Below, one piece after another: positions 29,498 through 31,520 of a stretch of DNA of 45,533 bases. The position numbers and the translations under genes are program-made. The notes under the pieces were generated by a model. It made no database searches. It had not been told where the DNA came from and worked only from the letters and a program-made list of their open reading frames with translations. Position 1 is the first letter of the stretch. The number at the start of each line of letters is the position of its first letter. The DNA is from Candidatus Doudnabacteria bacterium (GTDB lineage: Bacteria > Patescibacteriota > Doudnabacteria > UBA920): NCBI GenBank assembly GCA_023245895.1, contig JAHFJJ010000009.1:1-45533 (forward strand). Reading direction: 5' to 3'.

Positions 29498-30730
29498 TTA
29501 TTCTTTTAATTTACTTACTTTTCGAAGTTCTTTGACTAAGCCGGGTAAAATTTTAATGACAAAATCTATTTCGGATTTTTTTGTACCTTTACCTAAAGTG
29601 AACCTTATACTGCTCTTGGCCTCTGCTTGGGTCCTACCCAGGGCAAGTAACACATGAGAAGCTTCTGTTATGCCTGTACTGCATGCGCTGGATGTAGATG
29701 CTGATATGCCGTAGGAGTCTAGGTACAGCATCAAGGCCTCCCCTTCCAGCCCTTTTATTGTTAGGTTAATATTATTAGGTAATCTTTTACCTAACTCAGT
29801 TCCGTTAATAATTATATTTTTAATCCCCCTTTTAACCCCTTTTATTAAACGGCCGCTTAAATTAAAAAGTTTTTGGGATTCATCTTCTTTGTCCTGTTGG
29901 GCTAATTCAAAAGCTTTGGCTAGTCCTACTATAGCCGCGACATTTTCCGTTCCGCTCCTCATCCCGTGTTCCTGGCCGCCGCCGTAAATTAAGGGCTTTA
30001 AATTAACTCCGCTCCGTACATACAAAAACCCGCTCTGTTTGGGCCCGTATATTTTACTGCCGTTAACGGACATTAAATCCACATGCAAACGATTCACGTC
30101 TAAATCTAAAAACCCGGCGGCCTGGCAGGCATCGGTGTGGAAGATTATTGGCTGTTGATCCTTTTTTAAGCGCCGCTGGTTCTCCCCTTTTAGCCACTTG
30201 CCTATTTCTTCCACAGGTTCAATCGTGCCAATTTCATTATTAGCCAGCATTACGGAAATAAAAACGGTTTCCGGACGGACGGCTTTTTTTAATTTTTCCA
30301 GACTTATAAAGCCTTGCTCATCAACCTCCGCAAAAGTTACCTTATTCCCCTCCCCTGCCAGAGCTTTAAAACAATTAATTACACAATGGTGCTCGATAGA
30401 GGATGTGATAAAATGAGACGTTCCGTGTTTATTTGTTTTTGTATTCGTGTCCATCCGTGCTACCCCGAAAATTGCCAAATTTACGCTCTCCGTCCCGCCG
30501 GCGGTAAAAATTATTTCGGATGGCCGGGCATTAATCAATCTTGCAATCACTACCCTGGCATCATTAATCGCCTGCTTAGCCTCTCTGCCCTTTTGGTAAA
30601 GTGAAGACGGGTTGCCAAACTTTTCAGCCAAAAAAGGCTCCATGGCTTTTTTAACCTGTGGGTCCAAAGGCGTAGCCGCGGCGTGGTCAAGATATATTAA
30701 TTTTTTAGGTTTTTTGACTTTTGGAAACAT
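29498..30730 (-). CDS. Cysteine desulfurase (NifS/IscS family)
   Basis: This PLP enzyme takes sulfur from cysteine for Fe-S clusters or tRNA thiolation. The 410-residue protein has YLDHAAATPLD, the GGTES cofactor loop, SSIEHHCV, HTDACQAAG, the PLP lysine in VNGSKIYGPK, and the active-site Cys in STSSACSTG. Length and motifs are typical of NifS-like group I enzymes. No iscU or mnmA is adjacent. On the minus strand TGTTATAAT ends six bases before the ATG, so the mRNA is probably leaderless. The candidate structured RNA lies upstream, apparently transcribed in the other direction. Confidence 0.94.
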   Translation of the reverse strand: MFPKVKKPKKLIYLDHAAATPLDPQVKKAMEPFLAEKFGNPSSLYQKGREAKQAINDARVVIARLINARPSEIIFTAGGTESVNLAIFGVARMDTNTKTNKHGTSHFITSSIEHHCVINCFKALAGEGNKVTFAEVDEQGFISLEKLKKAVRPETVFISVMLANNEIGTIEPVEEIGKWLKGENQRRLKKDQQPIIFHTDACQAAGFLDLDVNRLHVDLMSVNGSKIYGPKQSGFLYVRSGVNLKPLIYGGGQEHGMRSGTENVAAIVGLAKAFELAQQDKEDESQKLFNLSGRLIKGVKRGIKNIIINGTELGKRLPNNINLTIKGLEGEALMLYLDSYGISASTSSACSTGITEASHVLLALGRTQAEAKSSIRFTLGKGTKKSEIDFVIKILPGLVKELRKVSKLKE

Positions 30731-30736
30731 GAGTTT

Positions 30737-30745
30737 ATTATAACA
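30737..30745 (-). promoter_or_regulatory. Extended -10 promoter of the cysteine desulfurase gene
   Basis: TGTTATAAT on the minus strand, six bases from the ATG. Confidence 0.7.
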
Positions 30746-30764
30746 AAACCGGGCGTATATTAAA

Positions 30765-31021
30765 GCCGCCCGGCGTAATGAGAAGAAAGGGCTCTTGAAG
30801 ACCGCGTAAAGCGTTTAGGTTACGGAGGTGAGGCGCCTCCATCCTTATCTTCTACCTCTTTCTAAGGAGTTAGGTTATACCCGCCTAAACTTTAAATATA
30901 TAAACATCCGGGCGGCGGCATATACCCTAAAGTGCTTCCTCCTTCTCATTCTTCCGCAAGCAGTCCCCGTCCCTATACTGCTGACTGTTCGCAGGACCCA
31001 CGCCCCGGCGCGGGAATTTTT
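30765..31021 (+). ncRNA. Candidate structured RNA with possible pseudoknot
   Basis: A GC-rich non-coding stretch of about 255 bases in an otherwise AT-rich gap. GCCGCCCGG (30765-30773) pairs with CCGGGCGGC (30908-30916), and AATGAGAAG (30777-30785) pairs with CTTCTCATT (30942-30950); together they form a pseudoknot or two alternative folds. GTTTAGG/CCTAAAC (30813, 30884), GGAGG/CCTCC (30824, 30836) and AGCAGT/ACTGCT (30959, 30977) add hairpins. The plus strand is favoured by TATATT at 30756-30761 and a CCCG-GCG-CGGG hairpin with AATTTTT at the end. I cannot assign a family; 6S, SRP, RNase P and tmRNA marks are absent. Confidence 0.5.
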
Positions 31022-31103
31022 GGGAAGAAAATTTACGACAATTTTCATCCCGAACCTTGGACGTATATTGTAAACAAAAAAATACTAGTCGTCAACCCTG
31101 AAT

Positions 31104-31520
31104 TTAACGGCTTGATTTCACAAACCCGGCCGCAATTGCTTCGCTGGGGGTATTAAAACATTGTTCAGCTTTGGTGCGGTCGTAGAACGCCCCGCCTTTT
31201 ACGTGGAAAATTTTCTTGCCTGCGCTGGAAATATTGCCTTTAACCGGACAATTCCCGTTTAAAGCACTAGTTGCGGCCGGCGCGGCTGGCTTTACTGTGC
31301 CAACCTCAATAGCGGCCCCCGCTACAGCCGGGGCTGGTTTTTCTGCCTGTTTTGTGGTATAATTGGTTAAAGGCTTGTACGCATCCCGCGCTATCCCCCG
31401 CTCGTACCTTCCGGCGCCAAAGCCAACCAAAAAAATCAATAAAAACCCTGCCGCTATTACAACCTTGTTTTTATTTTCTTTTTCGGCACACCAATTTTTT
31501 ATTTCTTCGTAAGTTATCAT
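31104..31520 (-). CDS. Membrane-anchored protein with Ada-like metal-binding fold at the C-terminus
   Basis: The 138-residue protein has a short cytoplasmic start (MITYEEIKNWCAEKENKNK), one membrane helix (about 20-38), a Pro/Ala-rich linker, and a C-terminal domain CPVKGNISSAGKKIFHVKGG...YDRTKAEQCFNTPSEAIAAGF. That domain (K-G-N-x-S-x-x-G-x-x-I-Y-H-x-P-G-G, Y-D-R-T) is common behind thermonucleases and surface proteins and resembles the Ada metal-binding fold. The role is unknown. TGTTATAAT ends eight bases before the ATG, giving at most a 1-2 base leader. Confidence 0.75.
   Translation of the reverse strand: MITYEEIKNWCAEKENKNKVVIAAGFLLIFLVGFGAGRYERGIARDAYKPLTNYTTKQAEKPAPAVAGAAIEVGTVKPAAPAATSALNGNCPVKGNISSAGKKIFHVKGGAFYDRTKAEQCFNTPSEAIAAGFVKSSR

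What the first reader, a model, noticed from the sequence alone, without database searches (positions are those of the whole stretch)
30765..31021. GC-rich non-coding region with a likely pseudoknot
Two 9-base perfect pairings cross each other (30765-30773/30908-30916 and 30777-30785/30942-30950), and several hairpins and a terminator-like end are present. Large pseudoknotted RNAs are few and usually important. No known RNA family mark is visible, so this could be an undescribed RNA.
Basis: partly seen in the sequence, partly recalled or inferred. Interest (0 to 1): 0.7.

Follow-up and report, generated by a model that had tools for sequence, protein, structure and literature searches.

The report
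Undescribed small RNA hiding ribosome-binding motif

Summary
The two crossing 9-base pairings are real, but such crossings occur in about 6% of 340-base stretches of this window, and the second helix has no counterpart in ten related RNAs. The pseudoknot is not supported. The wider guess, an undescribed RNA, holds up, on the minus strand. The gap holds a sigma-70 promoter (TTGACG-17-TACAAT, 31095-31067), about 320 bases of stable structure and an intrinsic terminator (about 30774-30740). A separate TATAAT then sits just before the desulfurase start codon. Ten of 22 genomes of the family carry a similarly built RNA gene at this site, almost without DNA similarity between genera. Nine of ten distinct RNAs share AAGGAGGA (best shared 8-mer; shuffles reach 4 of 10), and in all nine it can pair with a downstream partner (combined p about 1e-15). 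Flanking pairs of that stem covary. AAGGAGG is the perfect complement of the family's 16S rRNA 3' end. There is no conserved reading frame and no Rfam match; RNase P RNA and tmRNA lie elsewhere. Best reading: an independent, rapidly evolving structured small RNA with a sequestered Shine-Dalgarno mimic, perhaps ribosome-interacting. The RNA gene is well supported; the mechanism is inference.

The parts
31067..31095 (-). sigma-70 type promoter TTGACG-17-TACAAT
   Evidence: 10 of 12 matches; 1.5% of shuffles as good
30745..31062 (-). predicted structured RNA (about 320 bases); transcription start inferred from the promoter, 3' end from the terminator
   Evidence: fold z -3.2; synteny and shared motif in relatives
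30954..31051 (-). three 5' hairpins (31051-31022, 31014-30997, 30994-30954) of the predicted fold
   Evidence: MFE and centroid structure, single sequence only
30938..30950 (-). 5' arm of the main stem, AATGAGAAGGAGG
30937..30944 (-). AAGGAGGA, conserved Shine-Dalgarno-like motif
   Evidence: 9 of 10 distinct RNAs; complementary to the 16S 3' end CCTCCTT of the family
30777..30789 (-). 3' arm of the main stem, CTTTCTTCTCATT
30858..30868 (-). TCCTTAGAAAG, 11 bases complementary to the family's 16S 3' end (CTTTCTAAGGA); seen only in this species
30908..30916 (-). GCCGCCCGG, interior partner of the proposed second helix; could instead act as an antiterminator
   Evidence: not conserved
30740..30774 (-). 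intrinsic terminator hairpin (arms 30774-30767 and 30755-30748) with the U-rich tail TTTTGTTAT
   Evidence: fold, sequence
30737..30742 (-). TATAAT, likely -10 element of the separate promoter of the desulfurase gene
29498..30730 (-). cysteine desulfurase (NifS/IscS type) gene downstream
   Evidence: Pfam PF00266 E 6e-63
31104..31520 (-). small uncharacterised protein gene upstream, conserved in the family
   Evidence: no Pfam match

Best explanation
An independent small RNA gene, transcribed on the minus strand from about 31060 to 30745 by its own sigma-70 promoter and ended by its own intrinsic terminator. The RNA is built of short 5' hairpins and one stem-closed multibranch module (two such modules in several relatives). 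The stem holds a perfect Shine-Dalgarno sequence (AAGGAGGA) paired with its complement. Most likely mechanism (inferred): the RNA acts in trans on the ribosome or on translation. The SD mimic is kept hidden until the stem opens or is processed, then it can bind the anti-SD of 16S rRNA. Shown by computation: promoter, terminator, stem covariation, conserved motif, absence of a conserved ORF, synteny. Inferred: expression, trans action, contact with the 30S subunit.
For: Promoters on the desulfurase strand reach 12/12 (L018), 11/12 (L013) and 10/12 (window, L025), each matched by at most 1.5% of shuffles. U-tailed hairpins end most of these gaps. AAGGAGGA is in 9 of 10 distinct RNAs, against at most 4 of 10 for any 8-mer in shuffles. 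In all nine its arm has a downstream partner (seven at p 0.001, one 0.013, one 0.077; Fisher p about 2.5e-15). In the stem alignment 6 of 13 pairs change on both sides with pairing kept; 0 of 500 shuffles reach the covariation score. The purine arm is better conserved than its partner (CTCCTTC in 6 of 10), so the SD-sense strand seems to be what is selected. The 16S 3' end of the family is GGATCACCTCCTTTCTAAGGAAT. The window RNA also has an 11-base complement to that end, reached by 0 of 200 shuffles. The window's minus-strand fold holds 14 G-U pairs among 102 and is more stable than the plus-strand fold. A TATAAT close to the desulfurase start in several relatives argues for separate transcription.
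Against: No expression data. Outside the 7-base SD core, complementarity to 16S is no better than shuffles in most relatives. The motif lies in a very stable stem, which would hinder ribosome binding. The closest relative compared (L012, 74% identical desulfurase) lacks motif and promoter. No cross-genus alignment of whole RNAs was possible. The stem alignment A2 used 7 of 12 modules chosen for clean register, so its counts are biased upward; one search is the unselected test. Promoters in L014, L016, L027 and L028 are no better than shuffles.
Confidence: 0.35

Rival explanations
1. The same RNA gene, but the conserved stem is a binding site for a protein or a structural core (a scaffold RNA), and the resemblance to a Shine-Dalgarno sequence is incidental.
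For: The motif is always paired; complementarity to 16S does not extend beyond 7 bases in most relatives; second modules carry variants such as GGAAGGAGA, GGAAGGGGA and GGGAAGAAGA.
Against: The one conserved 8-mer contains exactly the anti-SD complement, and the purine arm is more conserved than its partner.
Confidence: 0.3
2. A cis-acting attenuator or riboswitch leader of the cysteine desulfurase gene: the terminator is conditional and read-through feeds the downstream gene, perhaps sensing sulfur or Fe-S status.
For: Position directly upstream and co-directional; the main stem abuts or overlaps the terminator's 5' arm in several relatives; in the window, interior GCCGCCCGG could act as an antiterminator.
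Against: A TATAAT lies after the terminator and just before the start codon in the window, L013, L025, L027, L028, L087 and L091; the antiterminator is not conserved; several relatives lack the RNA but keep the gene order; no conserved aptamer-like core.
Confidence: 0.2
3. A small ORF or leader peptide translated from the AAGGAGGA.
For: A start codon lies 4-8 bases after the GGAGG core in L013, L018, L025, L027 and L016.
Against: The window RNA has no start codon in range; peptides are 14-84 residues or open-ended and share no sequence; L025 and L091 differ by a one-base indel inside the frame.
Confidence: 0.05
4. A plus-strand pseudoknotted RNA.
For: The crossing helices exist; the plus strand also folds better than shuffles.
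Against: No good plus-strand promoter at the right end, minus-strand promoter and terminator in several loci; second helix not conserved.
Confidence: 0.03

Closest known systems
GOLLD, ROOL and OLE large ornate bacterial RNAs
   Same: Structure-rich RNAs outside the housekeeping set, of unclear function (PMC12286853, abstract).
   Different: No Rfam match. From general knowledge those are larger and keep much sequence; this one keeps one 8-mer, is about 270-510 bases long and is limited, as far as seen, to one family.
6S RNA (RF00013)
   Same: A structured small RNA with its own promoter would be an expected regulator; no 6S above the cut-off was found in this family.
   Different: Multibranch, not a rod with a central bubble; no match.
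Transcription attenuators and riboswitch leaders
   Same: Structured RNA plus terminator upstream of a metabolic gene.
   Different: Likely separate promoter after the terminator; no conserved aptamer or conserved antiterminator.
RNA thermometers and RBS-sequestering hairpins
   Same: A Shine-Dalgarno sequence hidden in a stem (general knowledge).
   Different: No conserved reading frame behind the motif.

Membership tests
Any Rfam 15 family | covariance-model score above the gathering cut-off | tested here: not met
RNase P RNA (RF00010) | model match at this locus | tested here: not met
   the genome's copy is on contig C26
tmRNA (RF00023) | model match or tRNA-like domain at this locus | tested here: not met
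   the genome's copy is on contig C38; ARAGORN finds none in the window
6S RNA (RF00013) | model match | tested here: not met
   no match in the own genome; none above the cut-off in 22 family genomes
Pseudoknotted RNA | crossing helices conserved in relatives | tested here: not met
Independent small RNA gene | own promoter and own intrinsic terminator | tested here: met
   by sequence only
Independent small RNA gene | structure conserved by covariation | tested here: met
   main stem only; whole-RNA structure not testable with the few alignable sequences
Independent small RNA gene | transcript of the expected size | not testable with these tools
   no expression data held
Cis-acting attenuator | mutually exclusive terminator and antiterminator conserved in relatives | tested here: inconclusive
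   stem and terminator overlap in some relatives, interior antiterminator not conserved

The most novel reading that the evidence does not exclude
A new family of trans-acting RNAs in a group of small-genome bacteria that carry a locked Shine-Dalgarno sequence and, when opened, occupy the anti-Shine-Dalgarno end of 16S rRNA, acting as a global brake or storage factor for translation.
Probability: 0.15. Interest if true: 0.85.

Novelty: new variant of a known kind. Interest (0 to 1): 0.52.

Why it matters
Structured RNAs of such small-genome bacteria are poorly charted, and this one would be missed by sequence search since whole-RNA similarity is lost between genera. If the locked Shine-Dalgarno motif does contact the ribosome, it would be an RNA-based control of translation initiation in cells with few regulators. 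Even without that, it is a clear new RNA gene candidate with a concrete test.

Tried and rejected
BLASTN of the window RNA in 145 relatives found only itself; none in phages. A covariance model of the short stem cannot span the 77-182-base interior of most modules, so its genome search is uninformative: it missed most known copies and hit chance hairpins. Exact patterns for both arms found only the known loci plus one chance hit in the own genome and one known locus in the class. The first 16S tail pattern failed because the sequence before the tail differs; the Rfam SSU model gave it. Extended base pairing with 16S beyond the SD core was not supported in most relatives. Conserved leader peptide rejected. 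Structure-aware MAFFT modes were not installed. Literature searches found no description of such an RNA, though only open-licence papers are held.

Full report
Observation. The two 9-base pairings are in the sequence at the stated coordinates and cross each other. Crossing 9-base pairings are uncommon in shuffles of the same stretch (0.7%) but occur in 31 of 532 sliding windows of the same size across the whole window, so on their own they mean little. One helix (30777-30785 with 30942-30950) is part of a stem conserved in relatives. The other (30765-30773 with 30908-30916) joins an interior segment to the 5' arm of a terminator hairpin; no similar crossing pairing exists in the 10 other RNAs examined.

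Strand and limits. The flanking genes, a cysteine desulfurase (29498-30730, Pfam PF00266) and a small uncharacterised protein (31104-31520), are both on the minus strand. On that strand the gap has a sigma-70 promoter TTGACG-17-TACAAT at 31095-31067, then about 320 bases of strong predicted structure (z -3.2), then a G+C hairpin with a U-rich tail at about 30774-30740, and then a TATAAT at 30742-30737 just ahead of the desulfurase start. The minus-strand fold contains 14 G-U pairs among 102 (plus strand: 5 among 100) and is 15 kcal/mol more stable than the plus-strand fold. Z-scores of folding alone do not decide the strand. The promoter and terminator do.

Relatives. The desulfurase and the upstream small gene are neighbours in most genomes of the family. 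In some genera the gap is 58-120 bases; in others it holds a protein gene (L017, a hydrolase-like ORF; L019 and L030, opposite-strand ORFs). In ten of 22 family genomes it holds what looks like the same kind of RNA gene: six genomes of the window's genus including the window (L011, L013, L014, L018, L027, L028), one of a second genus (L016), and three of a third (L025, L087, L091). A seventh genome of the genus, L012, has a structured gap without motif or promoter. DNA similarity between genera is not detectable, so the RNAs evolve fast.

What is kept. Among ten distinct transcripts, AAGGAGGA is shared by nine (all but L012); in shuffled sets no 8-mer reaches more than four. The motif sits in the 5' arm of a stem that closes a multibranch module. 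Without choosing among sequences, the 13-base arm finds a downstream partner better than shuffles in the nine RNAs (seven at the floor of p 0.001, L028 at 0.013, L014 at 0.077; Fisher p about 2.5e-15). In an alignment of seven cleanly registered modules, the five outer pairs change on both sides while staying paired and the GAAGGAG core stays nearly constant; the covariation score is 0.54 against 0.19 in shuffles, reached by none of 500. That alignment was selected for clean register, so one search is the fairer test. L013, L018 and L027 carry a second, similar module (GGCGGAAGG-type) next to the terminator.

What the motif matches. The 16S rRNA 3' end of the family is GGATCACCTCCTTTCTAAGGAAT, so AAGGAGG is its perfect anti-Shine-Dalgarno partner. 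The purine arm is better conserved than the pyrimidine arm (AAGGAGGA in 9, CTCCTTC in 6 of 10), as expected if that arm is what is used. Extended complementarity to 16S is not general: only the window RNA has an 11-base match (TCCTTAGAAAG, 30868-30858, 0 of 200 shuffles), and the duplex energies of most relatives are no better than shuffles. No reading frame follows the motif consistently: the window RNA has no start codon in range, and the peptides elsewhere share nothing. A one-base indel between L025 and L091 breaks the frame in a close pair.

Known families. Rfam has no match at this locus or in ten relatives. RNase P RNA and tmRNA are on other contigs. 6S RNA is not found in the family above its cut-off; that is a negative from one model and does not make this RNA a 6S substitute, whose rod shape it lacks.

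Mechanism. The evidence supports an independent, rapidly evolving RNA gene (my estimate 0.8). For its function I rate a trans-acting RNA with a hidden Shine-Dalgarno mimic that engages the ribosome highest, at about 0.35 including the RNA-gene claim; a protein-bound scaffold RNA at 0.3; and a desulfurase attenuator at 0.2. The attenuator reading is weakened by the TATAAT between terminator and gene in several relatives and by the lack of a conserved antiterminator, but the overlap of stem and terminator arms in some relatives keeps it alive.

Limits. No expression data; only ten distinct sequences, most too divergent to align outside the stem; the promoters of L014, L016, L027 and L028 are not better than chance; transcript ends in the relatives were set by eye from promoter and terminator sequences; the covariance-model search could not span the module interior, so copies elsewhere in the genomes cannot be excluded; the organism could not be named with the tools at hand.

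Noticed in passing
gap between the small gene and the desulfurase in L017, L019, L030: In other genera the same gap holds unrelated protein genes (a 289-codon hydrolase-like ORF, and opposite-strand ORFs of 182 and 136 codons), so the site seems to accept insertions.
   Followed up: partly
L130 and L131 (16S rRNA of G002 and G013): The 16S matches span 1759 and 1635 bases instead of about 1465, which suggests intervening sequences in the rRNA gene.
   Followed up: no
window 31104-31520: Small protein conserved across the family, with a hydrophobic N-terminal segment and a conserved C-terminal part (HVKGGAFYDRTKAEQCFNTPSEAIAAGF), without a Pfam match.
   Followed up: partly
window 30858-30868, minus strand: An 11-base perfect complement to the 16S rRNA 3' end, inside the RNA and separate from the AAGGAGGA motif, seen only in this species.
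   Followed up: partly
L018, L025, L087 RNAs, 5' domain: A second shared word, TGACATCA, lies in a hairpin loop of the 5' domain in three of ten RNAs; it may mark another functional site.
   Followed up: no
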